From the NCBI RefSeq assembly GCF_007097395.1, contig NZ_VKDC01000005.1, positions 186,001 to 250,000 on the forward strand: a stretch of DNA of 64,000 bases, in the 5' to 3' direction. Under the pieces are notes generated by a model. It ran no database searches, had not been told where the DNA came from, and saw only the letters and a list, made by a program, of their open reading frames with translations. This document shows, one piece after another, positions 10,800 through 60,595 of the stretch. The position numbers and the translations under genes are program-made. Numbering within the stretch: position 1 is the stretch's first letter; each line of letters starts with the position of its first letter. This DNA is from Fulvivirga sp. M361. Lineage in GTDB: Bacteria; Bacteroidota; Bacteroidia; Cytophagales; Cyclobacteriaceae.

Positions 10800-11654
10800 T
10801 TACGGAATCAATATGCCCTTTTGCACTTTGCTGATGTACTGTTTCAAAACCAGTTCAGGTTCATTGGTAGTTATATAATCAAAACCTTTCTCCAAGCACC
10901 AATTAATATCACTGCTATCATTTACCGTCCAGACATTAAGAGAAATATTGTTTTCCCTGGCCATTTCAATCCAGTCAGGATGTTTTTTATAAATAGGAAA
11001 AGGGTAATCAGCCCCATTGATACCGTCAATCTTTAGTTCTGAAGGAGACCTGTCACCTTTTAAGTATTGGGTATGTGCATTAGAATTAATGGCCTCAATT
11101 TTCTTTAAAATGTTATAGTCAAAGCTGATATAGGCCATCATATGTGTTGCATTTAGTGCTTCTACCAGCTCAAGTACTTTAACGGCCATCGCCTGCCCGC
11201 GACCTTTTGTAGCGGAAGGCTTTATTTCGCATATCAATCGGGTAGTTACGTTTTGCTTCATCCCTGCCATAATATAACTCCGTAAAGTGGGTAGGGCCTC
11301 TCCATTGGAAAGTGGAAAGGCCACCAATTCATCATAGGCTACCTTTTCAATGGTCATGCCTTCATAGTTTGGATCATGGGTAACGATCAATGAATCATCT
11401 GCCGTCATTCTAACATCGAATTCTGACCCGGTACATTGGAGTGCAATGGCTTTACGAAGCGCTGCGATAGAGTTTTCCGGCAGACCTCCTGATTTCCAGG
11501 CACCCCGATGGGCAATTACTACATTGTCCGAAAAGGAAACGCTGTTCATTTTTGGTCCGCAAGAGATTAAGTGAATAAAAAACAATAGCCAAATAATACA
11601 CCCTTTAGTAATGCCTGCTCCGGTTGCAAATTTCAGTTGGTTCATTAATTTCAT
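10800..11654 (-). CDS. Glycerophosphodiester phosphodiesterase (GDPD) lipoprotein
   Basis: 284 residues with a lipoprotein signal (hydrophobic IIWLLFFIHLISC, lipobox LISC at about residue 32), so it is probably anchored in the periplasm or on the surface. GDPD enzymes hydrolyse glycerophosphodiesters to glycerol-3-phosphate and an alcohol. The family motif HR-ExD-HD is complete: AHRGAW near 48, SEFDVRM near 79, THDPNY near 93, with the metal-binding Glu in LICEIKP near 143 and the late VWTVND motif near 243. Its start overlaps the stop of the GDPD-GH16 fusion gene by four bases, so the two are translationally coupled, and it is the last gene of the SusC/SusD operon. It is a close paralogue of the GDPD half of that neighbour and the one with an intact active site. 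Confidence 0.92.
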   Translation of the reverse strand: MKLMNQLKFATGAGITKGCIIWLLFFIHLISCGPKMNSVSFSDNVVIAHRGAWKSGGLPENSIAALRKAIALQCTGSEFDVRMTADDSLIVTHDPNYEGMTIEKVAYDELVAFPLSNGEALPTLRSYIMAGMKQNVTTRLICEIKPSATKGRGQAMAVKVLELVEALNATHMMAYISFDYNILKKIEAINSNAHTQYLKGDRSPSELKIDGINGADYPFPIYKKHPDWIEMARENNISLNVWTVNDSSDINWCLEKGFDYITTNEPELVLKQYISKVQKGILIP

Positions 11655-13258
11655 TTTCTCTGGTATACCCTCACATAATCAACGGCCATGCGCTGAGGAA
11701 AAATGGTATCGTCCACTCCTTCCCGACCTCCGAGCATCCCTCCAACAGCTATGTTAAGTTTCAGGTGAAAGGGTTGATTAAATGGCCATTCAGCTTCTGT
11801 TTCATGCCTGTTTTCAAAATGATGATAGACCATATCATCCAGTAAAAAATCTATCCTATCCTCCGACCAATCAATGGCATAGGTATGGAAATCATCATAG
11901 GGCTTTTCTATGAAAATGGTTTTACCTACCTGGGTACCCTTCATGTGGTTAAAAGCTGTGGTATGAACCGTGCCAAAAATGGAGTCTTTTTTGAAGCCCA
12001 CATGCTCCATAATATCGATTTCTCCACATTCAGGCCATCCCACCCGTCCCCAGTTTTCACCTAGCATCCAAACAGCCGGCCATAACCCCACACCCTTAGG
12101 CAATTTTGCTCTCACTTCAATTTTACCATATGTCCATTCTGCGAGATCTTTGGTAGTAAGGCTTGATGATGTATAATGCGCATATTCCCGGTTATTCTGC
12201 CAGTTTTTTGCCTCTTTAGAAACATAAGCATCGTTTTTAATACGTTCCTTATGGCTTTCAAGGATCAGTAGCCCAGCTTCCACCCTGGCGTTTTCAGAAC
12301 GACCGGTGTAATACTGATCTTCCACGTTTCGTATGAATCCGATTTCATAGCCCCACTTTGTACTATCTGGTTTACCGGGTTGATCAAACTCATCGCTCCA
12401 AACCAGCTCCCAACCGGAGGTAACAGAAGATACTGATATCCTTTTAGAAAGCAATTCGGGTTCATCCGTTGATATGTAATCCAATTGGTTAGCAATCAGC
12501 CAGTCCATGTCATGGATGTGGTTTACTGTACCGGAATTCAGTAATACGTTATGCATTTTTGCAGCTATGATACGCTCAGGATGTTTCCTCAGGCTCTGAT
12601 AACGATAGTTAACGCCGGTTATACCATCTACTCTTAACCGTTCAGGAGATCTATCACCCCCCAAATATTGCACTTGTGCATTGGGATATACAGCAATAAC
12701 CTTTTTGAGAGCATCATAATCAAAGCTAATAAATACCATAATGGACTCAACCCGAAGTTTTTTTATAAGGTCCAGGATCTTTTCAGTCATGTTTAGCGTA
12801 CGTTTCTTACTGATCTCTGAGGATTTTATTTCACAAAATAGCTTTGTAGTACTATTCTCTGTCGTACCTGCAAGAATATACTCTTTTAGCGTAGGTAGTT
12901 TTTCGCCATTTCCAAGTTCAATCCTGGCCAGTGATCCATAGTCCGTCTTTTCTATGGGCATTTTATGATAATTCGGCCCATGGGTAACGACCAGTGAGTC
13001 GTCAGCGGTCATGTTAACGTCAAACTCAGAACCTGCATACCCGGAAGCTATCGCTTCTCTGAGAGAAGCGATAGAGTTCTGCGGATGGCCCTGGGACTTC
13101 CATGCCCCACGATGCGCAACGACCTTTACCCCGGTTGATGTCTTCTTTTGCTCCTGGCCCTGATGTGTGCAGAAACAAAAGAAAAGCATCATACATATCC
13201 CTGCAAGTCCATATAGGCATTTATCTAAACAATACATAAATGAATCAATACCCGTCAT
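11651..13258 (-). CDS. Fusion of a GDPD domain and a GH16 beta-glucanase (laminarinase-like)
   Basis: 535 residues. A hydrophobic N-terminus (LYGLAGICMMLFFCFC) looks like a lipoprotein signal. Residues about 46-275 are a GDPD domain: AHRGAWKSQGHPQNS, SEFDVNM, FCEIKSS. The HD of the motif reads HG (THGPNY), and the late VWTVN motif reads NSGTVN, so catalysis may be weakened. Residues about 280-535 are GH16: WELVWSDEFDQPGKPDSTKW, GLWPAVWMLGENWG and the catalytic GEIDIMEHVG near 415, typical of laminarinase-like beta-1,3(4)-glucanases. The ATG overlaps the end of susD by 14 bases and its stop overlaps the next GDPD gene by four. A single polypeptide that could bind or split a phosphodiester and cut the glucan backbone is unusual. 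Substrate is inferred, not shown. Confidence 0.9.
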   Translation of the reverse strand: MTGIDSFMYCLDKCLYGLAGICMMLFFCFCTHQGQEQKKTSTGVKVVAHRGAWKSQGHPQNSIASLREAIASGYAGSEFDVNMTADDSLVVTHGPNYHKMPIEKTDYGSLARIELGNGEKLPTLKEYILAGTTENSTTKLFCEIKSSEISKKRTLNMTEKILDLIKKLRVESIMVFISFDYDALKKVIAVYPNAQVQYLGGDRSPERLRVDGITGVNYRYQSLRKHPERIIAAKMHNVLLNSGTVNHIHDMDWLIANQLDYISTDEPELLSKRISVSSVTSGWELVWSDEFDQPGKPDSTKWGYEIGFIRNVEDQYYTGRSENARVEAGLLILESHKERIKNDAYVSKEAKNWQNNREYAHYTSSSLTTKDLAEWTYGKIEVRAKLPKGVGLWPAVWMLGENWGRVGWPECGEIDIMEHVGFKKDSIFGTVHTTAFNHMKGTQVGKTIFIEKPYDDFHTYAIDWSEDRIDFLLDDMVYHHFENRHETEAEWPFNQPFHLKLNIAVGGMLGGREGVDDTIFPQRMAVDYVRVYQRK

Positions 13259-36424: not shown

Positions 36425-37264
36425 TTAACCTCCCACCTGCTCCCGGTACCTTTTTCGAAAATCAAGGGGTGAATATCCCTTATATTTTTTGAACTGCTTG
36501 AAAAAGAAAGGTAAGCTCTCATAACCACAAGAATACCCTATCTCCGCCACCTGTTGGTCCGTTTCTATCAGTAACCTCCCTGCCCTGTTGACCCGATATT
36601 CATTGAGGAAAGAGAAAAATGGCTTTTGCATTCTCTTACTAAAAAAACGTGAGAAAGATTCATTGGTCATACTTAGCAAGGTAGCCATTTGCGCTAAAGT
36701 GATCCTTTCCTGAAAGTGGGCGCTCAGGTACTGATGTATAAGATCAAGCCTGTCATTTGTTCTTTTTGATGTATCAATTTGATAACTGGCGCTTGCCAGT
36801 AGTTGATAATTTTTAGATTGGGTGAGTTGATGTAAGAGGCTAATAAACCGGGTAAATCTCAAAAAAGGTTCCCTGGTCAATACAAGTTGCAGAAATACCT
36901 CTTTCAGGTCTTCTGAAAATCTGACGCCTCGCTGCGACAATGTTAATAGATGATGGATAGCGTTGAACTCCGGGATCTTGGGTAACGCACTGCCCTGCCA
37001 TTGGATGACAACAGACTTTGCTCCATTACTTGATGCGCTGGTTCTCCAGCAGTGCGGAAGTCCGGTACCTAACAAAACCATATCCCCGGGCGCATAAGCG
37101 CTCACGTCATTACCCACATATCGCATCCCTATTCCTTTAAGAATTAGTGTTAGTTCATATTCCGGATGATAATGCCAGGGGGCATTAAAAGTTTTGTCCT
37201 CATAGATGAATGCTGTAATAGCCTCTTCATCTCCACTATATACCTTTTCAAAAACTGCCTTCAA
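36425..37264 (-). CDS. AraC-family transcriptional regulator with cupin sensor domain
   Basis: 279 residues. The N-terminal cupin domain (NAPWHYHPEYELTLILKGIG, AYAPGDMVLLGTGLPHCW, about 25-85) is of the kind that binds a small ligand, often a sugar. The C-terminal 100 residues hold two helix-turn-helix units (ERITLAQMATLLSMTNESFS and VAEIGYSCGYESLPFFFKQF then KYKGYSPLDFRK). It is divergent from the dioxygenase-dehydrogenase-esterase-GH2 operon, with 134 bases between the two starts, so it most likely controls that operon and itself from the shared region. The inducer is unknown. Confidence 0.93.
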   Translation of the reverse strand: MKAVFEKVYSGDEEAITAFIYEDKTFNAPWHYHPEYELTLILKGIGMRYVGNDVSAYAPGDMVLLGTGLPHCWRTSASSNGAKSVVIQWQGSALPKIPEFNAIHHLLTLSQRGVRFSEDLKEVFLQLVLTREPFLRFTRFISLLHQLTQSKNYQLLASASYQIDTSKRTNDRLDLIHQYLSAHFQERITLAQMATLLSMTNESFSRFFSKRMQKPFFSFLNEYRVNRAGRLLIETDQQVAEIGYSCGYESLPFFFKQFKKYKGYSPLDFRKRYREQVGG

Positions 37265-37354
37265 AGTTCCTTTTTTAGCATCTTTAAAACTGAATCGTCA
37301 AATAAATGCTAAAATAGTTTACTTTTTTAACAAAATAGGAAAATCACTCCTCAA

Positions 37355-37372
37355 AAAGAGGCGCTAATTTTG
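37355..37372 (+). promoter_or_regulatory. Candidate promoter of the dioxygenase operon
   Basis: TAATTTTG at 37365-37372 matches the Bacteroidota -7 consensus TAnnTTTG, 26 bases before the PhyH-family ATG. Just upstream a small inverted repeat CCTC-aaaaa-GAGG (about 37349-37361) lies where an activator or repressor could bind. No strong -33 TTTG is present, which would fit a promoter that needs the divergent AraC protein. This reading is inference. Confidence 0.4.
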
Positions 37373-37398
37373 ATGATCCAATAAACAGTAATTTCAAT

Positions 37399-38295
37399 AT
37401 GAAGTTAAAAAGCGATCTCTCTTTGCATCATGAACTGGTAAGTGACCTCTTTCCTAAATTATCAGCAAAAGAAACCTGGGAAACCTATAAACTACCGGAT
37501 GAACAGGTAGCGCATTTCAATGAATTTGGCTACCTCCATAATGTAAAGCTACTGGAAGAAAACCAGGTCGATCATCTTAAACAAGAGTTAGATGAGATCA
37601 TGGATCCTGATCATCCGCGACATCACCTTTTTTATGAATTCCATACCAATGAATCTGAAGATCCAAATTCGGTCTTGTTCCATTCCCTGGGGCACTGGCG
37701 CATCACCAGGGCTTTTCACGATATTCTATGGAACCCACGATTTGTAGTCGCTGCTTCTCAACTTCTTGGTAACAAAGCAGTGAGGTTCTGGCATGATCAA
37801 CTGTTTTGTAAGCCTGCGCATCATGGAGGGGTTGTGGCCTGGCACCAGGATTACAGCTACTGGACACGGACATCTCCCATGCAACATCTGACGTGCTGGG
37901 TGGGTCTTGATGATGCAAATACCGATAACGGCTGTTTGCATTACATACCGAAAAGCCATCACTGGGGCTTACTGGACAAACCTAACCTGGCCGGTGATAT
38001 GGAAAAGCTTAATGACTACCTGACCGACGATCAAAAGGAGACTTTCAAAGACAAAGTAGCCATAGAAATGCCCAAAGGCTACGGTTCTTTCCATCATCCG
38101 CTTTTAGTCCATGGTTCATATGAAAACAGGTCAGAAAGGTCGAGAAAGGCTTTTGTGCTTAATGTCTTTGCAGACGGGACCTTGTCTGACTCCGATGAGA
38201 TCCTATTGAAGGGGGTACCCACTATCAAAAAGGGCGGAAAAATGGAAGGCCAATATTTCCCGCTTCTCTTCGACCCAAAAGACATCCAAAATTAA
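37399..38295 (+). CDS. Phytanoyl-CoA dioxygenase (PhyH)-family Fe(II)/2-oxoglutarate oxygenase
   Basis: 298 residues, cytoplasmic (no signal peptide). PhyH-family enzymes use Fe(II), O2 and 2-oxoglutarate to hydroxylate or oxidatively remove groups from small molecules. The iron-binding HxD is in VVAWHQDYSYWTRTSPM near residue 150, the distal His in HHPLLVHGSYENRSERSRKA near 235, followed by the Arg expected to hold 2-oxoglutarate. The loop NTDNGCLHYIPKSHHWG is also typical. It is the first gene of an operon and its stop is two bases before the alcohol dehydrogenase ATG. The substrate is unknown; neighbours point to a sugar-derived compound. See the findings for the demethylation hypothesis. 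Confidence 0.9.
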   Translation: MKLKSDLSLHHELVSDLFPKLSAKETWETYKLPDEQVAHFNEFGYLHNVKLLEENQVDHLKQELDEIMDPDHPRHHLFYEFHTNESEDPNSVLFHSLGHWRITRAFHDILWNPRFVVAASQLLGNKAVRFWHDQLFCKPAHHGGVVAWHQDYSYWTRTSPMQHLTCWVGLDDANTDNGCLHYIPKSHHWGLLDKPNLAGDMEKLNDYLTDDQKETFKDKVAIEMPKGYGSFHHPLLVHGSYENRSERSRKAFVLNVFADGTLSDSDEILLKGVPTIKKGGKMEGQYFPLLFDPKDIQN

Positions 38296-38297
38296 TA

Positions 38298-39416
38298 ATG
38301 AGCATTGTTTGTAAGGCAGCCATTGCCTATGGAGATGGTCAATATGGCATTGAAAAAATAGAGGTAGGTCAACCCAAGGAAGATGAGGTACTGGTAAAAG
38401 TGAAAGCAGCTGGCTTATGCCATACAGATCATGACTCCCTGACCTGGGGTAAGCCTGTGGTACTAGGGCATGAAGGTTCCGGGATAGTAGAGAAGGCAGG
38501 AAGTGAAGTAATCGGATTGGAAGAAGGTGATGCGGTTATTTTGAACTGGGCCACTCCATGTTACCAATGTCATCCATGTCAGCACGGGTATCAAAACCTC
38601 TGCCAAAATAATTCCCCGGTAGTAGCCGGTGCCAATGGTTTCACTCCGGGACATGCACATATAGAGGGTACTACCTGGAAGGGTGAATCAATCGAGCGAT
38701 CTTTCAATATTGGAACGCTTTCAGAGTATACACTGGTCAAAAGTTCTGCTCTGGTAAAAAATCACAGCAAAAAGCTTCCTTTTGATGCAGCAAGCATCCT
38801 CAGCTGCGGGGTGATGACAGGGTATGGTTCAGTAGTGAATTCCGCAAAGTTTATCACCGGATCATCAGCGGTAGTTTTAGGAACCGGAGGCGTGGGGTTG
38901 AGTGTGATCCAGGGGGCTAAAATATCGGGTGCCTCGATGATCATTGCCATTGATATTAATGAAAACAGGCTTAAGCTTGCTGCTCAATTTGGGGCCACTC
39001 ATACCATCCTGGCTGAAAAAGAGGATACAGGGTTGCTAAAGGCAGCCGAAAAGGTAAAACAACTCACAGGCGGTTTTGGCGCTGACTATGCTTTTGAATG
39101 CACCGCCGTCTCCACACTTGGAGCAGCACCCCTCGCCATGATCAGAAATGCCGGTACGGCTGTGCAGGTAAGTGGTATTGAAGAAGAGATCACCATCGAC
39201 ATGCGCTTGTTCGAATGGGACAAAACCTATATCAATCCTCTATACGGAAAATGCAACCCACAGGTAGATTTCCCAAAACTTGTCGACCTGTATGACCGGG
39301 GCCTTTTGAAACTGGAAGAAATGATCACGAGAACTTATCACCTGGACCAACTTCCCGATGCTTTCGAAGACATGTTATCAGGTAAAAACGCTAAAGGAGT
39401 GATTTCCTTTCCATAA
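38298..39416 (+). CDS. Zinc-dependent alcohol dehydrogenase, class III/formaldehyde-dehydrogenase-like
   Basis: 372 residues of the medium-chain dehydrogenase family. The catalytic zinc ligand Cys41 is in AAGLCHTDHDSL, the GHE of GHEGSGIVE is at 57-59, and the structural-zinc cysteines 88, 91, 94 and 102 (CYQCHPCQHGYQNLC) have normal spacing. The cofactor fold shows VLGTGGVGLSVIQGAKISGA, and IIAIDINENRLKLAAQFGA suggests NAD(H). LSCGVMTGYGSVVNSAKF closely follows the class III, mycothiol- and NDMA-dependent formaldehyde dehydrogenase pattern. It lies between an oxygenase and an esterase gene with gaps of two and one bases. It may oxidise an alcohol or thiol adduct of an aldehyde released by the oxygenase, which is inference. 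Confidence 0.92.
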   Translation: MSIVCKAAIAYGDGQYGIEKIEVGQPKEDEVLVKVKAAGLCHTDHDSLTWGKPVVLGHEGSGIVEKAGSEVIGLEEGDAVILNWATPCYQCHPCQHGYQNLCQNNSPVVAGANGFTPGHAHIEGTTWKGESIERSFNIGTLSEYTLVKSSALVKNHSKKLPFDAASILSCGVMTGYGSVVNSAKFITGSSAVVLGTGGVGLSVIQGAKISGASMIIAIDINENRLKLAAQFGATHTILAEKEDTGLLKAAEKVKQLTGGFGADYAFECTAVSTLGAAPLAMIRNAGTAVQVSGIEEEITIDMRLFEWDKTYINPLYGKCNPQVDFPKLVDLYDRGLLKLEEMITRTYHLDQLPDAFEDMLSGKNAKGVISFP

Positions 39417-39417
39417 G

Positions 39418-40226
39418 ATGAAACGATTTAGAACCACAGAAATATCCGATCCTAATTTCGAGAATGATAATCTGCGATTCATAACGGTTAAGACAGCCCA
39501 TTTAAAAGGGCGCGGTGACATATGTGTATTTGTACCTGACGTCCCGGATACAACTGATCTTCCTATTGTTATTTTACTGCATGGTGTCTATGGAAGCGCC
39601 TGGGTATGGTCACAAAAGGGAGGCGCCCATGTAACGGCTGCCAGCCTGATAGAAGAAAAAGAAATTAAGCCCATGATCCTTGCTATGCCATCGGACGGGC
39701 TTTGGGGGGATGGTTCCGCTTACCTTCCACATCACCAGTATGACTTCGAACAATGGATTGTTTCCGAGTACCGGATGCCATTATCGAAAATATACCGCAA
39801 GCCTCGTCCAACTCTCAACTTTTTATCTCCGGGCTTTCTATGGGCGGTTTCGGAGCGCTAAGGCTCGGTACAAAGTATAGTTCTCGTTTCAGCGGGATAT
39901 CCGCTCACTCGTCCATTACCTCCCCCGACCAGCTCCCTCTTTTTGTGGAAGAGCCATTGGAAGGGTATGAACAATCTTCAAAATCATCTGAAGATATCCT
40001 GGATAATATGTTGCGCAATAAAGGCTCCCTCCCTCCTATTCGATTTGACTGTGGCAAAGACGACCTCCTTATTGAACACAATCGTACTCTACATCAAAAA
40101 ATGAAAGATGAACAAATTCCACATTCCTATTTTGAGTTTCCAGGGAAACATGAATGGAGTTACTGGATTAAGCATCTTAAAGACACGTTACTTTTTTTCG
40201 ATCAAATACTACGTAAATCCACCTAA
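39418..40226 (+). pseudogene. Esterase-D/S-formylglutathione-hydrolase-like esterase, broken by one frameshift
   Basis: An alpha/beta-hydrolase esterase (PF00756-like) split into two frames. The first frame (39418 to about 39768) gives the N-terminal half: LPIVILLHGVYGSAWVW, PMILAMPSDGLWGDGSAYLP, YDFEQWIVSE. The second frame (from about 39768 to 40226) continues without loss: VPDAIIENIPQ, the nucleophile elbow GLSMGGFGALRLG, RFDCGKDDLLIEHNRTLHQ with the acid Asp, and FPGKHEWSYW with the catalytic His. The break is at GAGTACCGG (39766-39774), where one missing base, as in GAGGTACCG, would restore one protein of about 269 residues. Everything else is conserved, so the shift is either very recent or a sequencing error. 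The start is one base after the dehydrogenase stop. Confidence 0.85.
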
Positions 40227-40238
40227 TCCATCCAAGAA

Positions 40239-42758
40239 ATGAAGAAATTGATAGTTATTACCTGTTGCCTTGCCTTTTTACTTTCAGGATGTCAAAAACC
40301 TACTTCCAGGGAAGTTCAGGATTTCAACTTCGACTGGCGGTTCCACCTTGGAGAAGCGGTTGAAAAAGAAATGTTAAATCAGCCGGATAACTACTCATGG
40401 AAAGAGGTAAGACTTCCCCACGATTGGAGTAGCGAATCTTCGTTTACCCAAGTTGAAACGGGTTCATCTACCGGGTTCCTGCCCGCCGGAATAGGTTGGT
40501 ACAAGAAAGATTTTTCCATTTCTGAAGAGGATAAAGGCAAAGTAGTCTCCATAGAATTTGATGGCGTTTATAATAACGCCCAGGTATGGATCAATGGAAC
40601 TTCCCTTGGTGAACGCCCTTATGGTTACAGCAGCTTTAGTCATGATTTAACACCTTACCTCAACGTGGGAGACGTACAAAACACGCTTTTGGTAAAAGTA
40701 GACCACTCCAATTACCTGGATTCAAGGTGGTATACCGGGTCAGGAATATACCGTGATGTCAGACTGGTAAAAAGATCAAACGTTCATATACCTCAGTGGG
40801 GTGTCTTTGTTACTACTCCAAACATCAATGCTGAGCAAGCCTCCGTCGCGGTAACGATAGATTTGGCTAAGTACGACAATGGGCCGGCTGAAATAGCGCT
40901 TAAAGGAAGTATCTTTTCCCAGGGTGGAGCTCCGGTAACTTCCTTAGAGCAAAATGCCACCGTCGACAGTTCCGGAAAAGTCAGCCTGGAATTCACCATT
41001 AATGATCCCATACGCTGGGACATTTCCGCTCCTCATCTCTATACGTTGAAATTAGAGCTGATGCAAGACGGTCATGTGATCGATGAAGAAATCCAAACCT
41101 TCGGGATTAGGACCGCCCGATTTGATGCTGACAAAGGGTTCTTCCTCAATGAGAAAAATATAAAATTAAAGGGGGTGAACCTGCACCATGCAGCCGGAGC
41201 GGTAGGTTCAGCCGTACCTGTTGATGTATGGCGGCGGCGGTTTGAAAAACTGAAAAGTATCGGCTGTAATGCCATCCGGACAGCGCATAATCCTGTCGAC
41301 CCGAAATTCCTCGATCTTTGTGATGAAATGGGGTTTTTGGTCATTAATGAATTCTTTGATGAATGGAACATCCCTAAAGAAAAAAGCCTCCATAAACTGG
41401 GAGACAACCTGGCGCCGGATGAGGTGACCCATGGCTACAGTGAGCAATTTGACAAATGGGCAGAACGTGACCTGAAAGATTGTATGCGAAGAGATAGAAA
41501 CCATCCTTCTATTATCCTTTGGAGCATTGGCAATGAAATAGAATGGACACATCCCTATTACTCACAAGCTTATGAAGTGGTTAACGGAAAGCAGGAATAT
41601 TATCAATTCCAGCCCAGTTTTGACTCCATGAAAATAAAAAAGGCGTTGGATGAAATTACCGGAGGAAAAGACTCCCTTTTACAAATTGCTAAAAAACTCG
41701 TCAATTGGGTAAAAGAGATGGACACAACAAGACCTGTCACTGCCGGGAACGTATTGCCATCCGTTGGCCTGGCCAGCGGCTATGGTCAATCAGTCGATGT
41801 ACTGGGCTTCAACTACAGGGCCACAGAATACGACGGCGCACATGCCACCTATCCCGACCTGCTGATCTATGGTTCTGAAAATTGGGGGGCCTGGAGTGAA
41901 TGGAAAAATTGTATCGATCGTGATTTTGTAGCAGGTATATTCTGTTGGACAGGATTTGCCTATGCCGGCGAATCCGGCCCCTGGCCACTCAAAGGGCTTA
42001 ATATTTCTTTCTTTGACTTTGCCGGATTTAAAACTCCCAGAGGACATTTCTTTGAAACATTGTGGAAAGAAGAGCCTCATGTCTACATGGGCACCACTCC
42101 GGAAGACGAATCTGAGTTTAGCTATGATCCAAAAACCGGTTTTTCAGTGGAATACAAAGACGAATGGATCAGAAGATGGGCCTGGTATGATATCTACGAC
42201 AAGTGGCAATACGAAACCAAAGAAAACATCATCGTACAAGTTTATTCTAACTGTGAGGAAAATGAACTTTTCTTAAATGGAGAGAGTCTTGGCAGAAAAC
42301 CGCTTGTAGATTTTAAAGAAGATAACATTATCAAATGGATCGTACCTTATGAAGCCGGCACACTGAAGGTAGTGGGATATCAAAATGGAAAAGAGGTAGC
42401 TGACTATTCGCTAAGCACCACATCTGAAATTACCGATATCGACTTATCGGTAGACAAAACCGTTCTTAAGGCCAATCATTATGATGTGGTCCATGTAGAA
42501 GCAAGGCTCAGGGATAAAAATGGTGTTTTGGTCACACATGCCCCTACACTGGTCCACTTTGAAGTGGATGGTGACATGAGACTCTTAGGTATTGACAATG
42601 GATCAGCCTCCAATGTACAGAATTACAAAGCTTACCAATGTGAATCGCATAATGGAAAAGTGCTTTTAATGTTGCAGGCGAACGGTACAGCTGGTGAGGT
42701 GAAAATTATAGCTAAAGCGAATAGTATCCGCTCAGAAGTGACGCTTCAAATTGAGTAG
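40239..42758 (+). CDS. GH2-family beta-galactosidase-like lipoprotein
   Basis: 839 residues with lipobox LLSGC at about residue 18, so it is lipid-anchored in the cell envelope. The GH2 sandwich domain (RFHLGEAVEKEML, VRLPHDWSSES, GIGWYKKDFSIS, NNAQVWINGTSLGERPYGYS, SGIYRDVRLVK) leads into the barrel with KGVNLHHAAGAVG, IRTAHNP and the acid/base Glu in ILWSIGNEIEW. The likely nucleophile is the Glu of LLIYGSENWGAW. C-terminal beta domains follow (NELFLNGESLGRK). GH2 enzymes remove terminal beta-galactose and related sugars from oligosaccharides. It is the last gene of the AraC-linked operon, 12 bases after the esterase. Given the agarase-like GH16 13 kb away, an agar- or porphyran-type galactan is plausible but unproven. 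Confidence 0.9.
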   Translation: MKKLIVITCCLAFLLSGCQKPTSREVQDFNFDWRFHLGEAVEKEMLNQPDNYSWKEVRLPHDWSSESSFTQVETGSSTGFLPAGIGWYKKDFSISEEDKGKVVSIEFDGVYNNAQVWINGTSLGERPYGYSSFSHDLTPYLNVGDVQNTLLVKVDHSNYLDSRWYTGSGIYRDVRLVKRSNVHIPQWGVFVTTPNINAEQASVAVTIDLAKYDNGPAEIALKGSIFSQGGAPVTSLEQNATVDSSGKVSLEFTINDPIRWDISAPHLYTLKLELMQDGHVIDEEIQTFGIRTARFDADKGFFLNEKNIKLKGVNLHHAAGAVGSAVPVDVWRRRFEKLKSIGCNAIRTAHNPVDPKFLDLCDEMGFLVINEFFDEWNIPKEKSLHKLGDNLAPDEVTHGYSEQFDKWAERDLKDCMRRDRNHPSIILWSIGNEIEWTHPYYSQAYEVVNGKQEYYQFQPSFDSMKIKKALDEITGGKDSLLQIAKKLVNWVKEMDTTRPVTAGNVLPSVGLASGYGQSVDVLGFNYRATEYDGAHATYPDLLIYGSENWGAWSEWKNCIDRDFVAGIFCWTGFAYAGESGPWPLKGLNISFFDFAGFKTPRGHFFETLWKEEPHVYMGTTPEDESEFSYDPKTGFSVEYKDEWIRRWAWYDIYDKWQYETKENIIVQVYSNCEENELFLNGESLGRKPLVDFKEDNIIKWIVPYEAGTLKVVGYQNGKEVADYSLSTTSEITDIDLSVDKTVLKANHYDVVHVEARLRDKNGVLVTHAPTLVHFEVDGDMRLLGIDNGSASNVQNYKAYQCESHNGKVLLMLQANGTAGEVKIIAKANSIRSEVTLQIE

Positions 42759-56499: not shown

Positions 56500-58446
56500 A
56501 TGAAAGCACAAAAACTATTATTATTGAGCGCATGTGCATTATTGACCACTTCACTGGTCTTTGCACAACCCACCTTCCAAAGCGGCCAGGACCCCAAACC
56601 GGCAGGCAAAAAGTGGGAAAAGATACAGAACATGTCTGACGAGTTTAATGGCTCCTCTCTGGACGGATCGAAATGGGCAAAATCAGATCCCCAATGGGCG
56701 GGACGGGTTCCTGGAAAATTTAAAGAGAATACTATCGTAGTAGGTGGCGGCGACCTTAAAGTCACGAATTACAAGTTATCATCTCCCGAAGGCAGTTACA
56801 CACATGCCTGTGGTTTGATAAGGTCTCTTGCCAAAAATACGTATGGTTACTATGAGACCAGGATGAAAGCCAGCAGGACCTTTATGTCATCCACGTTCTG
56901 GCTTTTTAACAAGAGAAATGAAGGTTCCGGCTGTGATGTAAGGACGACAGAACTGGATATTACAGAAACCGTAGGATTTAATTCCAATGGGGCCAGCTGG
57001 GTGGACACTAACATACGAAGTATGAACTCAAATACGCACAGCAGAGGCACCACATGCAGTAGCACTCCTGTAGGGCAACAAGGGAACAAAGCGGCCCTGG
57101 GAGGCCAGTCCTGGCAGGATTACCACGTCTATGGCGTATGGTGGAAGAGTAAAACCGAATTATTGTTTTACCTGGACGGGCAATTCAAATATCAGATAAC
57201 ACCTCCCGCTGATTTTAACCTTCCGATGTATTTACGCATGGTGACTGAAACCTATGACTGGAACCCGGTACCACCTGATGGTGGAATGACAGGTTCAGCG
57301 GACTCGCGTACCACTTATTACGATTGGACAAGGTCCTGGAGACTGGTAGATGACAATAACCCCAACCCAGGCAACACTACCGTAAATTGTACAAGCCTAC
57401 CCTCTTCCCTAACGTCAGGGACCTCTATCACCGCCTCAGTAGACTATACCACAGACCAGTCCAGGGACGTAGTGATCGAGTTATGGAACTCAGGCTGGTT
57501 AGGACAGGGTAAAACTACCGTAAATGCCGGATCAGGTACGGCTAATGTAACGATCAACCTGTCCAATGCTCCTGCTGCCGGATCAAACTACCTGTTAAAA
57601 GCCAGCATACGTCCTGTAGGCGCTCCATGGCAGCAAAACATTGACGCCTGCAACAAAAGCAATATAACTGTTACCACTGGAGGAAGCGCCAACCAGGCTC
57701 CCTATGGTGGAACTGCCAGGACATTACCCGGATCAGTAGAAGCAGAACATTTCGATACAGGTGGGCAGGGAGTAGCTTATAATGATACTGGCGCCAACAA
57801 TATAGGTGGAAGTTTCAGGACATCCGAGGGAGTGGATATCACTTCGCTTGCTGCAGGAGGACATACAGTCGGATGGACTGCCAACGGTGAATGGCTTGAA
57901 TATACCGTCAACTTTAACGTTAGCCAGGACTATGATTTCTTCCCAAGTGTATCCTCTCCATCCTCATCCGGAAGGCTCAGGATCTTGATTGACGGGGTAG
58001 CCCAAACCGGCGATCTGACTGTTCCTAACACAGGAAGCTACAATACCTACCAGGTGATGCATGTCAGAAACATCAATGTATCTGCAGGAACGCATGTGGT
58101 GAGAATGGAAATCGTAAACAGTGGGTTTAATTTAAACAGCTGGGCGGCCTGGAAAGCACAGTTTCCTGCTGCCAGGACCATCGGAGACCTGGAAGAGCAA
58201 ATAAGTGGTCCTGCGGATATGAAAAACATAAACGTTTATCCTAACCCTTTCTCTTCCGGCAACTTAACCATTGTCCCGAGAAGCAATCAACCCGGTGTAA
58301 TCCAAATTTTCAGCTTACAGGGAAAGCAAATCTTTGAAAGAAATATCCAGGGAAATTCTATTGAGATCACCCGGGATGTTTTTAACGCCAGTGGTATCTA
58401 CATCATAAAAGTAAATGACCTCAGGCAAAAACTCATCGTGCATTGA
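56500..58446 (+). CDS. Secreted GH16 enzyme (agarase/galactanase-like) with CBM6 and T9SS tail
   Basis: 648 residues. Signal peptide to about 22 (SLVFAQ). GH16 domain about 40-285: MSDEFNGSSLDGSKWAKSD, MKASRTFMSSTFWLFNKR, catalytic TTELDITETVG near 150 (E-x-D-x-x-E) and the end YYDWTRSWRLV. The catalytic motif and the MSSTFWL element are closer to beta-agarase/porphyranase-type GH16 than to laminarinase. A beta-sandwich domain (about 292-395; VVIELWNSGWLGQGKTTV) and CBM6 (about 403-555; VEAEHFDTGGQGVAYND, TANGEWLEYTVNF) follow. The last 70 residues are a T9SS type A sorting domain (YPNPFSSGNLTIVPR, NASGIYIIKV). The enzyme should cut a galactan outside the cell. It follows the HTCS gene, its likely activator. 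Its C-terminal half is nearly identical to that of the next gene. Confidence 0.9.
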   Translation: MKAQKLLLLSACALLTTSLVFAQPTFQSGQDPKPAGKKWEKIQNMSDEFNGSSLDGSKWAKSDPQWAGRVPGKFKENTIVVGGGDLKVTNYKLSSPEGSYTHACGLIRSLAKNTYGYYETRMKASRTFMSSTFWLFNKRNEGSGCDVRTTELDITETVGFNSNGASWVDTNIRSMNSNTHSRGTTCSSTPVGQQGNKAALGGQSWQDYHVYGVWWKSKTELLFYLDGQFKYQITPPADFNLPMYLRMVTETYDWNPVPPDGGMTGSADSRTTYYDWTRSWRLVDDNNPNPGNTTVNCTSLPSSLTSGTSITASVDYTTDQSRDVVIELWNSGWLGQGKTTVNAGSGTANVTINLSNAPAAGSNYLLKASIRPVGAPWQQNIDACNKSNITVTTGGSANQAPYGGTARTLPGSVEAEHFDTGGQGVAYNDTGANNIGGSFRTSEGVDITSLAAGGHTVGWTANGEWLEYTVNFNVSQDYDFFPSVSSPSSSGRLRILIDGVAQTGDLTVPNTGSYNTYQVMHVRNINVSAGTHVVRMEIVNSGFNLNSWAAWKAQFPAARTIGDLEEQISGPADMKNINVYPNPFSSGNLTIVPRSNQPGVIQIFSLQGKQIFERNIQGNSIEITRDVFNASGIYIIKVNDLRQKLIVH

Positions 58447-58663: not shown

Positions 58664-60595
58664 ATGAAAGTACAAGATTCAACCCCTAAACGGATATTGG
58701 TGATGTTAGCCTTTATCCTGGCTTTATCACCCAACCTTATGTATGCACAGCTATGGCAGGGAAACGGTCGGATAGCGGTCAGCTCTGACGGCAATCAGCA
58801 CGATAGCGATGATTGGGCAGCAACGGCTGTTACCCTGGCCATTATTGGTAACCGACAGCTGCAGGACAAATTAGTCCATTATGATTATGCCAATCATGTA
58901 TGGAATAATAATACGCTTTTTGAGACTAACATCGAGGAAAGTGCATTGGGCGCTGCACAACGTTTTGGTTTCGATCAATCTAAGTTCTTCAATGCCTATC
59001 GAAACCAAACCGCGGCTATCAACAGTATAAAAAATGCTGTTAATGCCTCCTCAGCAAATAACAGGCTCTATTTCATCCTGGCCGGGCCTATGGAGGTCCC
59101 GTATCAGGGGATACTGGCCGCTGATGCCAACAAAAGGCAGTACGTTACCTGCATCTCTCACTCTACATGGAATGATCACCATGGCGATTGTGACGATGGC
59201 AGAGATTGGACCGAATGCCACCCCGGATCACATCATAAGCCTGATATTGAGGCATTGGGTGTGACATGGGTAGGTATATCAGACCAAAATACCAACAAGT
59301 TCAATACAGGCAGTATGGCTTCATGGAATTTCCTGAATACGTTAAATGGGACCTATGATGCAGCTTATGAATGGACCTACACCAGGGTAGACCTCGCTTA
59401 TACCACCGGCGATGCTTCAGATTGCGGAATAGCATACTATCTTTTTACGGGTGACCAGAACGGAAACACGACCAAGCTGGAAAATTTCATGAAGACTCCT
59501 GTTTCAAATCCCAACCCAAGCAATGCTACTGTAAATTGTACGACCCTGCCCTCTTCCCTAACGTCAGGGACCTCTATCACTGCCTCCGTAGACTATACCG
59601 CAGACCAGTCCAGGGACGTAGTGATCGAGTTATGGAACTCCGGCTGGTTAGGACAGGGTAAAACTACCGTAAATGCCGGATCAGGTACGGCCAACATCAT
59701 CATTAATCTGTCCAATGCACCGGCTGCCGGATCAAACTATCTGTTAAAAGCCAGTATACGTCCCGTAGGCGCCTCATGGCAGCAAAATATTGATGCCTGC
59801 AACAAAAACAACATAACCGTTACTACCGGAGGAAGCGCCAACCAGGCTCCCTATGGTGGAACTGCCAGGACATTACCCGGATCAGTAGAAGCAGAACATT
59901 TCGATACAGGTGGGCAGGGAGTAGCTTATAATGATACAGGCGCCAACAATATAGGTGGAAGTTTCAGGACATCCGAGGGAGTGGATATCACGTCGCTTGC
60001 TGCAGGAGGACATACCGTTGGGTGGACTGCCAACGGAGAGTGGCTTGAATATACCGTCAACTTTAACGTTAGCCAGGACTATGATTTCTTCCCCAGTGTG
60101 TCCTCTCCTTCGTCATCCGGGAGGCTCAGGATCTTGATTGACGGGGTAGCCCAAACCGGCGATCTGACTGTTCCTAACACAGGAAGCTACAATACCTACC
60201 AGGTGATGCATGTCAGAAACATCAATGTATCTGCAGGAACGCATGTGGTGAGAATGGAAATCGTAAACAGTGGGTTTAATTTAAACAGCTGGGCAGCCTG
60301 GAAAGCACAGTTCCCTGCTGCAAGGACCATCGGAGATCTGGAAGAGCAAATGAGCGATCCAACAGATATGAGAAACTTCAGCGTTTATCCTAACCCTTTC
60401 TCTTCCGGCAACTTAACCATTGTCCCGAGAAGCAATCAACCCGGTGTAATCCAAATTTTCAGCTTACAGGGAAAGCGGATCTTTGAAAGAAGTACCCAGG
60501 GAAATTCCATTGAGATCACCCGGGATGTTTTTAACGCCAGCGGCATCTACATCATAAAAGTAAATGACCTCAGGCAAAAACTCATCGTGCATTGA
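58664..60595 (+). CDS. Secreted nucleoside-hydrolase-like protein with CBM6 and T9SS tail
   Basis: 643 residues. Signal peptide to about 28 (NLMYAQ). Residues about 30-285 are not GH16. They begin NGRIAVSSDGNQHDSDDWAA, an Asp-rich motif of the kind that binds calcium in nucleoside-hydrolase (and DUF1593) folds, and later show RLYFILAGPMEVPYQGI and the unusual WNDHHGDCDDGRDWTECHPG. The assignment to this fold is tentative. From about residue 281 the protein has the same beta-sandwich, CBM6 and T9SS sorting domain as the GH16 gene before it. The shared CBM6 suggests that both proteins are targeted to the same polysaccharide. It may act on a sugar bond or side group exposed by the GH16 enzyme; that is inference. 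Confidence 0.78.
   Translation: MKVQDSTPKRILVMLAFILALSPNLMYAQLWQGNGRIAVSSDGNQHDSDDWAATAVTLAIIGNRQLQDKLVHYDYANHVWNNNTLFETNIEESALGAAQRFGFDQSKFFNAYRNQTAAINSIKNAVNASSANNRLYFILAGPMEVPYQGILAADANKRQYVTCISHSTWNDHHGDCDDGRDWTECHPGSHHKPDIEALGVTWVGISDQNTNKFNTGSMASWNFLNTLNGTYDAAYEWTYTRVDLAYTTGDASDCGIAYYLFTGDQNGNTTKLENFMKTPVSNPNPSNATVNCTTLPSSLTSGTSITASVDYTADQSRDVVIELWNSGWLGQGKTTVNAGSGTANIIINLSNAPAAGSNYLLKASIRPVGASWQQNIDACNKNNITVTTGGSANQAPYGGTARTLPGSVEAEHFDTGGQGVAYNDTGANNIGGSFRTSEGVDITSLAAGGHTVGWTANGEWLEYTVNFNVSQDYDFFPSVSSPSSSGRLRILIDGVAQTGDLTVPNTGSYNTYQVMHVRNINVSAGTHVVRMEIVNSGFNLNSWAAWKAQFPAARTIGDLEEQMSDPTDMRNFSVYPNPFSSGNLTIVPRSNQPGVIQIFSLQGKRIFERSTQGNSIEITRDVFNASGIYIIKVNDLRQKLIVH

What the first reader, a model, noticed from the sequence alone, without database searches (positions are those of the whole stretch)
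36425..42758. Possible O-demethylation and formaldehyde-clearing module in a galactan locus, using a 2-oxoglutarate oxygenase
Seen: an AraC gene divergent from four genes with gaps of 1-12 bases: PhyH-type Fe(II)/2OG oxygenase, class-III-like zinc dehydrogenase, PF00756 esterase and GH2 lipoprotein. Known: class III alcohol dehydrogenase plus esterase D (S-formylglutathione hydrolase) is the classical formaldehyde detoxification pair, and oxidative O-demethylation releases formaldehyde. The described demethylation of 6-O-methyl-galactose in porphyran uses a cytochrome P450 system. Inference: here a non-haem oxygenase could remove a methyl group from a methylated sugar released by the GH2 enzyme, with the next two enzymes clearing formaldehyde. 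I know of no such described system.
Basis: partly seen in the sequence, partly recalled or inferred. Interest (0 to 1): 0.65.

Follow-up and report, generated by a model that had tools for sequence, protein, structure and literature searches.

The report
Iron oxygenase replacing P450 sugar demethylase
In a seaweed-degrading bacterium, an operon normally built around a cytochrome P450 that strips methyl groups from red-algal galactose instead carries an unrelated iron oxygenase under the same switch, which points to a second, undescribed way of breaking down methylated algal sugar.

Summary
The genes are real, but the esterase is frameshifted in this assembly and the dehydrogenase is not class III. 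It groups with FoADH/ZoADH (PDB 8H2A/8H2B; 618, 590 bits), which lie beside the cytochrome P450 that demethylates 6-O-methyl-galactose (G6Me). Without ZoADH growth on G6Me is impaired, yet neither enzyme acted on formaldehyde (PMC10033563). Of 63 ADH loci, 29 carry the P450, 10 a close PhyH homologue, 1 both. Window and three relatives read AraC, PhyH, ADH, esterase where P450 loci read AraC, CYP, Fdx, FdR, ADH, esterase. Their AraC proteins nest among P450-locus AraC, and a 26-bp operator motif learned only from P450 loci has its best window hit just before PhyH. No P450 orthologue was found in this genome; a 6-O-methyl-porphyranase orthologue, a PorB-like porphyranase and four PF18206 domains were. 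Best reading: a self-sufficient Fe(II)/2OG oxygenase replaces the three-gene P450 system for methyl-galactose O-demethylation. The reaction is inferred, not assayed. Against: 7 of 11 sampled genomes with this PhyH lack the ADH; 2 PhyH-locus genomes also have the P450; the operator is seen at 4 of 12 PhyH loci.

The parts
36425..37264 (-). AraC-family regulator (cupin N-terminus, HTH_18), of the clade found divergent to G6Me-P450 operons
   Evidence: Pfam; quick tree: starred 26-row clade with 22 of 29 P450-locus and 4 of 4 PhyH-locus AraC
37311..37338 (+). Predicted AraC operator: two AAAATAG half-sites 21 bp apart, about 60 bp before PhyH
   Evidence: Motif learned only from P450-locus intergenics; best in the window at 26.5 bits, next 13.8. 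Strict pattern with up to 3 mismatches: 1 match in the own genome, with 0 mismatches; the reversed control also gave 1 match on each strand
37399..38295 (+). PhyH-family Fe(II)/2OG oxygenase, proposed methyl-galactose O-demethylase
   Evidence: PF05721 123.9 bits; H149, D151, H238, R249 invariant in 21 of 21 aligned homologues
38298..39416 (+). Zinc alcohol dehydrogenase of the FoADH/ZoADH type
   Evidence: 8H2A 618 bits, 8H2B 590 bits, next (class III) 206 bits
39418..39861 (+). Esterase, N-terminal part, broken by a frameshift after residue 117
   Evidence: 81% identity to residues 1-117 of the L012 esterase
39753..40226 (+). Esterase, C-terminal part in another frame, with GLSMGG serine motif
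   Evidence: PF00756 57 bits; 68% identity to residues 118-265 of the L012 esterase
40239..42758 (+). GH2 lipoprotein, beta-galactosidase of the GH2C type
   Evidence: 5T9A 742 bits, next 458; 5T9A is B. uniformis GH2C (PMC5849685)
56500..58446 (+). PorB-like GH16 porphyranase with CBM6 and sorting tail (context)
   Evidence: 3juu porphyranase B 306 bits; Pfam

Best explanation
The cluster is a variant of the marine G6Me-utilisation operon in which the three-gene P450 system (CYP, ferredoxin, ferredoxin reductase) is replaced by one PhyH-type Fe(II)/2-oxoglutarate oxygenase. GH2 releases methylated D-galactose from porphyran oligosaccharides. The oxygenase hydroxylates the O-methyl carbon using O2 and 2-oxoglutarate, and the hemiacetal falls apart to D-galactose and formaldehyde. 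The ADH and esterase, kept through the swap, act downstream on the one-carbon product or an adduct of it with an unidentified cofactor. AraC senses the sugar and acts at a 21-bp-spaced direct repeat. Shown: gene content, homology, shared regulator clade, shared operator motif, no P450 orthologue found in this assembly. Inferred: the demethylation, the substrate (G6Me most likely), the ligand and binding of AraC, the role of ADH and esterase.
For: ADH 618/590 bits to 8H2A/8H2B, FoADH/ZoADH; deleting ZoADH impairs growth on G6Me, not on galactose (PMC10033563). P450 in 29, close PhyH in 10, both in 1 of 63 ADH loci (one-sided Fisher p 0.013, not corrected for kinship or contig ends). Same position behind the divergent AraC in window, L012, L034, L096. 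On the ADH tree the PhyH label needs 6 changes among mostly P450 rows, at least 2 by starred branches. AraC of these 4 PhyH loci nest among P450-locus AraC. The operator learned from 18 P450-only intergenics (413 bits in total versus 243-251 in 5 shuffles) has its best window site before PhyH (26.5; next 13.8); 27 of 29 sites over 17 bits in 1.55 Mb of fetched loci, training loci included, lie just upstream of CYP, PhyH or ADH. No P450 orthologue here (best 78 bits, 26%; orthologues in class genomes 566-630), nor in 9 of 11 other PhyH-locus genomes. Own genome: 6-O-methyl-porphyranase orthologue (8EP4, 355 bits, key Gly kept) and 4 PF18206 domains; L012 has that porphyranase in the PhyH locus itself (8EP4, 362 bits). 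Iron and 2OG residues invariant.
Against: No activity is shown. In 395 class genomes, 7 of 11 with this PhyH have no ADH match (the ADH search scored at most 5 candidates a genome), 3 of them in the window's own family, and PhyH and ADH are adjacent in only 2. Zobellia barbeyronii (L037) and the L034 genome carry both PhyH and P450. The operator is seen at 4 of 12 PhyH loci (window, L012, L034, L096); the other 8 (L030, L036, L037, L039, L040, L050, L054, L065) have no site over 17 bits before PhyH, and in L065 PhyH lies 3.6 kb away on the other strand. In Eudoraea PhyH sits beside an HpcH aldolase and sugar-acid genes. 7 of 29 P450-locus AraC fall outside the shared clade. The esterase here is frameshifted. 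The model has low pLDDT near the iron-site loop. Completeness of the named PhyH-locus genomes was not told, and several loci end at contig ends.
Confidence: 0.66

Rival explanations
1. PhyH acts on a different porphyran- or agar-derived sugar (for example 2-O- or 4-O-methyl-galactose) under the same AraC control, and is not the functional replacement of the P450.
For: Both oxygenases coexist in L037 and in the L034 genome. In Zobellia galactanivorans loss of the P450 impairs growth on G6Me; whether that strain has this PhyH was not checked. Other PhyH members sit in different sugar loci.
Against: No P450 orthologue was found in the window genome and in 9 of 11 other PhyH-locus genomes; operator and AraC are those of P450 loci; the own genome has an enzyme for the 6-O-methyl fraction.
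Confidence: 0.23
2. ADH and esterase form a thiol-dependent formaldehyde-clearing pair with an unknown cofactor. Compatible with the best explanation rather than exclusive.
For: An esterase starts within 300 bases of the ADH end in 55 of 63 loci, with P450, with PhyH and, in L015, beside a desaturase-Rieske fusion. No hexulose-phosphate synthase over cut-off in the own genome (22 bits, cut-off 200). A 2OG oxygenase needs no NADH, so NADH supply to the oxygenase cannot be why the ADH is kept (inference).
Against: FoADH and ZoADH had no activity on formaldehyde alone or with the thiols tested. Class III ADH, mycothiol FDH and S-formylglutathione hydrolase cut-offs are not reached. The nearest solved relatives of the L012 esterase are feruloyl and other esterases. 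The pair also occurs with no oxygenase seen nearby, as in Mucilaginibacter.
Confidence: 0.4
3. PhyH is an unrelated hydroxylase, or catalytically dead like its nearest solved relative seems to be (RESC14), and its place here is chance.
For: Nearest solved structure by sequence and fold is the trypanosome RNA-editing subunit RESC14 (Z 32.0, rmsd 2.5 over 285).
Against: Iron and 2OG residues are intact in 21 of 21 homologues, whereas RESC14 shows WQQNY where PhyH has WHQDY. Adjacency recurs in two gene orders and, in four loci, under one operator.
Confidence: 0.06

Closest known systems
Cytochrome P450 G6Me demethylation operon of Formosa agariphila and Zobellia galactanivorans
   Same: Same ADH family, esterase, GH2, divergent AraC clade and operator motif in relatives of those operons (gene context in PMC10033563)
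   Different: CYP, ferredoxin and ferredoxin reductase are missing; a PhyH Fe(II)/2OG oxygenase stands in their place
FoADH / ZoADH (PDB 8H2A, 8H2B)
   Same: 371 of 372 residues aligned at 618 bits to 8H2A; Phe136 and the zinc-ligand motifs kept (motif roles recalled)
   Different: Partner oxygenase differs; activity of this ADH is untested
PhyH-fold 2OG oxygenases SnoK/SnoN, MysH, EvdO2
   Same: Fold (Z 25-27 for SnoK, SnoN and MysH, about 20 for EvdO2). That some act on sugar parts of natural products is recalled
   Different: 18-25% identity; biosynthetic, not catabolic (recalled)
Bacteroides porphyran and agarose PULs (BpGH16C, BpGH2C, B. uniformis GH2C)
   Same: GH2C-type galactosidase here; BpGH16C orthologue elsewhere in this genome; BpGH2C cleaves methylated D-galactose (PMC12316285)
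   Different: That paper says demethylation in these anaerobes is not elucidated and no gene around the loci could be suspected

Membership tests
PhyH Fe(II)/2OG oxygenases (PF05721) | Profile match above cut-off | tested here: met
   123.9 bits, cut-off 22, profile positions 1-213 of 213
PhyH Fe(II)/2OG oxygenases (PF05721) | HxD...H iron triad and 2OG-binding Arg | tested here: met
   H149, D151, H238, R249 invariant in 21 of 21 rows; their roles are recalled family knowledge
FoADH/ZoADH type (G6Me-associated ADH) | Sequence closest to 8H2A/8H2B and apart from class III | tested here: met
   618 and 590 bits, next 206
FoADH/ZoADH type (G6Me-associated ADH) | Needed for normal growth on G6Me | not testable with these tools
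   Shown for Z. galactanivorans only
Class III ADH / S-(hydroxymethyl)glutathione dehydrogenase | TIGR02818 equivalog cut-off | tested here: not met
   224.1 bits, cut-off 543.95
S-formylglutathione hydrolase (esterase D) | TIGR02821 equivalog cut-off | tested here: not met
   33.6, 42.2 and 26.3 bits for intact relatives in L012, L037, L032 and 26.8 for the window fragment; cut-off 281.7
P450 G6Me demethylation operon | CYP with ferredoxin and reductase in the locus | tested here: not met
   No P450 in the operon; own genome's best is 78 bits at 26%
P450 G6Me demethylation operon | AraC clade and operator of those loci (a feature found here, not one from the papers) | tested here: met
   21 of 29 P450 loci have a site over 17 bits before CYP, and L032 one between CYP and ADH
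GH2C-type beta-galactosidase | Closest solved relative 5T9A, well above others | tested here: met
   742 versus 458 bits; NCBIfam GalA/GalB cut-offs of 900 not reached (573, 554)

The most novel reading that the evidence does not exclude
G6Me O-demethylation has been taken over more than once by a non-haem Fe(II)/2OG oxygenase that needs no redox partners, under an unchanged AraC regulator and operator, while one ADH plus esterase pair serves P450, PhyH and perhaps a desaturase-Rieske oxygenase (L015). That pair would then be a general one-carbon clearing module with a cofactor not yet identified.
Probability: 0.48. Interest if true: 0.78.

Novelty: new variant of a known kind. Interest (0 to 1): 0.66.

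Why it matters
G6Me can make up as much as 28% of the porphyran chain (PMC10033563). A 2OG route would be a second chemical solution to the same step, would widen the set of bacteria predicted to use methylated algal galactans, and gives a one-gene tool for sugar demethylation. It also bears on an open question in print: why the ADH is required on G6Me. A 2OG oxygenase does not use NADH, so keeping the ADH beside it argues against the cofactor-recycling idea discussed in that paper and for a role after demethylation (inference).

Tried and rejected
Class III ADH plus S-formylglutathione hydrolase as the clearing pair: rejected as family membership, kept as a functional possibility. The own genome's single P450 (L003/L114) as the demethylase: 26% and 78 bits to the G6Me P450, neighbours matched none of the redox-partner clusters. 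The own genome's second PhyH hit (52 bits, partial): only its neighbours' sizes were printed, not followed. First motif runs: one search used a seed chosen by eye from P450 and PhyH sequences together, so it is biased; one search ran without a seed but held 30 coding bases on each side and found the CYP start instead; one search removed coding bases and PhyH sequences and is the one relied on. In one search the L034 site was missed in the trimmed intergenic (-2.3 bits) and appeared only in the whole-locus scan (18.5), because it overlaps the AraC ORF's annotated start; the L096 intergenic was lengthened by 48 bases past the first start codon. Of the 18 training rows L016, L023, L031 and L056 gave no site over 17 bits; among the 29 P450 loci L013, L016, L022, L023, L031, L056 and L068 lack one (L013 has 13.7 before ADH). 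Maribacter L033/L035 AraC-ADH loci score 10.5 and 6.2. Six near-copies were dropped before training. Two ADH loci (L060, L063) dropped out of the neighbour print and the ADH tree through the ORF overlap filter but count among the 63. The ADH tree (71 rows, quick method) holds L021 and its identical twin L106. The ADH scan used six peptide patterns of one protein, so it finds close relatives only. The AF2 model was used for fold only: pLDDT under 50 at 84-92 and 153-156. Literature: searches returned no paper; in the listings of 94 (14 of 14 shown) and 95 (20 of 21 shown) I saw none on a 2OG sugar demethylase; the library is open-licence PMC only. Reisky 2018 and the 2022 formaldehyde study were not read, only met as citations. 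Seen: PMC10033563 abstract, sections 20, 21, 24, part 1 of section 32 and passages; PMC12316285, PMC5849685 and PMC5385347 passages only.
Full report
WHAT IS THERE. AraC (36425-37264, minus) diverges from PhyH (37399-38295), ADH (38298-39416), an esterase starting at 39418 and GH2 (40239-42758), with gaps of 2, 1 and 12 bases. The esterase is split over two frames; its halves match residues 1-117 (81%) and 118-265 (68%) of the intact L012 esterase. Intact copies exist in relatives. Whether the frameshift is real or an assembly error cannot be told here.

WHAT THE DEHYDROGENASE IS. Its nearest solved relatives are 8H2A (618 bits) and 8H2B (590 bits); class III enzymes follow at 206. PMC10033563 names these FoADH and ZoADH, reports that they lie beside the P450 that demethylates 6-O-methyl-D-galactose (G6Me) together with redox partners and an esterase, with GH2 and GH16 in the Formosa context, that deleting the ADH impairs growth on G6Me but not on galactose, and that neither enzyme acted on formaldehyde, alone or with glutathione, mycothiol, bacillithiol, cysteine, CoA, ergothioneine or aromatic thiols. 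The class III model is far from met (224 versus 544 bits). So the ADH links the operon to methyl-galactose but not, on present evidence, to formaldehyde oxidation.

WHAT STANDS IN PLACE OF THE P450. One scan with the ADH gave 63 loci. An esterase starts within 300 bases of the ADH end in 55 of 63. P450 homologues lie in 29, close PhyH homologues (over 400 bits) in 10, distant PhyH (56-58 bits) in 3, and one locus (L037, Zobellia barbeyronii) has both P450 and close PhyH. One-sided Fisher p for so few double loci is 0.013, uncorrected for kinship and contig ends. Typical P450 loci read AraC(-), CYP, Fdx, FdR, ADH, esterase; window, L012, L034 and L096 read AraC(-), PhyH, ADH, esterase. In Marinoscillum (L032) ADH, esterase and GH2 follow each other as in the window, with the P450 on the other strand and a protein with porphyranase domains (PF18206, PF18040) in the locus.

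SHARED REGULATOR AND OPERATOR. In a quick tree of 43 AraC proteins (midpoint root), a starred 26-row clade holds 22 of 29 P450-locus and 4 of 4 PhyH-locus regulators, the latter needing 3 changes, at least 2 by starred branches. A motif was learned without a seed from 18 non-redundant intergenics of P450 loci only (total 413 bits; 5 shuffled sets gave 243-251). Its best site in the whole window is at 37314 (26.5 bits; next 13.8 among 127,950 positions), and it scores 24.7 in L012, 27.2 in L096 and 18.5 in L034. Over 1.55 Mb of fetched loci, training loci included, 29 sites pass 17 bits: 22 before CYP, 3 before PhyH, 2 before ADH, 2 elsewhere. The other 8 close-PhyH loci show no site before PhyH. 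In sequence it is two AAAATAG half-sites 21 bp apart, a spacing familiar from AraC (recalled). In the own genome the strict pattern with up to three mismatches has one match, without a mismatch; its reversed control has one on each strand, so at that tolerance the pattern alone is not rare.

RECURRENT REPLACEMENT. On a 71-row ADH tree the PhyH label needs 6 changes, at least 2 by starred branches. Window and L012 form one pair (84% ADH identity); L050/L054, L034, L096, L065 and Eudoraea lie elsewhere. The order differs in Eudoraea and Zobellia (ADH, esterase, PhyH).

GENOME CONTEXT. The own genome (97.55% complete) has one P450, 26% identical and 78 bits to the G6Me enzyme of L032, while orthologues found in 8 of 395 class genomes score 566-630 against that of L037. 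Of 11 other genomes with a close PhyH in the ADH locus, 9 have no orthologue; those of L034 and L037 do (completeness mostly not told). The own genome encodes an orthologue (C110:8202-9044) of BpGH16C (8EP4, 355 bits); numbered from its catalytic Glu145 it keeps the glycine that PMC12316285 links to acceptance of the 6-O-methyl group. It also has four PF18206 porphyranase-type domains (GH86 by recall) and, in the window, a PorB-like GH16. In L012 the BpGH16C orthologue (362 bits) lies 2.6 kb downstream of the GH2 of its PhyH operon. The window GH2 is closest to 5T9A, B. uniformis GH2C; BpGH2C cleaved methylated D-galactose off a trisaccharide.

THE OXYGENASE. H149, D151, H238 and R249 are invariant in 21 of 21 homologues. 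The AF2 model (mean pLDDT 82.5, low near the iron-site loop) matches PhyH-fold oxygenases: RESC14 Z 32.0 (rmsd 2.5, 285 aligned), SnoK 26.6, MysH 25.4; fold does not show function. RESC14 lacks the HxD motif, this protein has it. Such an enzyme needs no ferredoxin or NADH, so one gene can stand for three (inference).

AGAINST. In 395 class genomes PhyH of this clade occurs in 11, the ADH in 11, both in 4 (G000, G207, G321, G327; hypergeometric p about 1e-4, uncorrected), and they are adjacent in only 2. Seven PhyH genomes have no ADH match, among them three of the window's own family; neighbours in those examined include DUF808, ThuA, sugar isomerase-like proteins and altronate dehydratase. 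The PhyH clade is thus broader than this pathway; on its tree the ADH-near and ADH-less rows interleave (6 changes). Two PhyH-locus genomes have both oxygenases. ADH plus esterase also occur with no oxygenase seen nearby, as in Mucilaginibacter.

VERDICT. The class III formaldehyde pair is not supported as stated. In the library searched I saw no paper describing it.

Noticed in passing
window 56500-58446 and 58664-60595: Two neighbouring secreted proteins share a 95% identical C-terminal stretch of 362 residues (CBM6 and sorting tail), but their N-terminal parts do not match each other: one is PorB-like GH16, the other (about residues 1-280) matches no Pfam family and no solved structure by sequence. 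A candidate new porphyran-active domain.
   Followed up: partly
L015 853-2307: The ADH plus esterase pair lies beside a fatty-acid-desaturase and Rieske fusion protein, possibly a third oxygenase type in the same role. One locus only, short contig.
   Followed up: no
L030, L039, L040, L036: Eudoraea loci with ADH, esterase, PhyH and an HpcH/HpaI aldolase; in three of the four, altronate-dehydratase-like and mannitol-dehydrogenase-family genes lie nearby. Hints at methylated sugar acids or deoxy sugars as substrates.
   Followed up: partly
window 11651-13258: Fusion of a glycerophosphodiesterase-like domain with a glucanase/laminarinase-like GH16 beside SusC/SusD-like genes.
   Followed up: partly
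window 39418-40226: Esterase frameshift in an otherwise well-conserved operon: recent decay or assembly error.
   Followed up: partly
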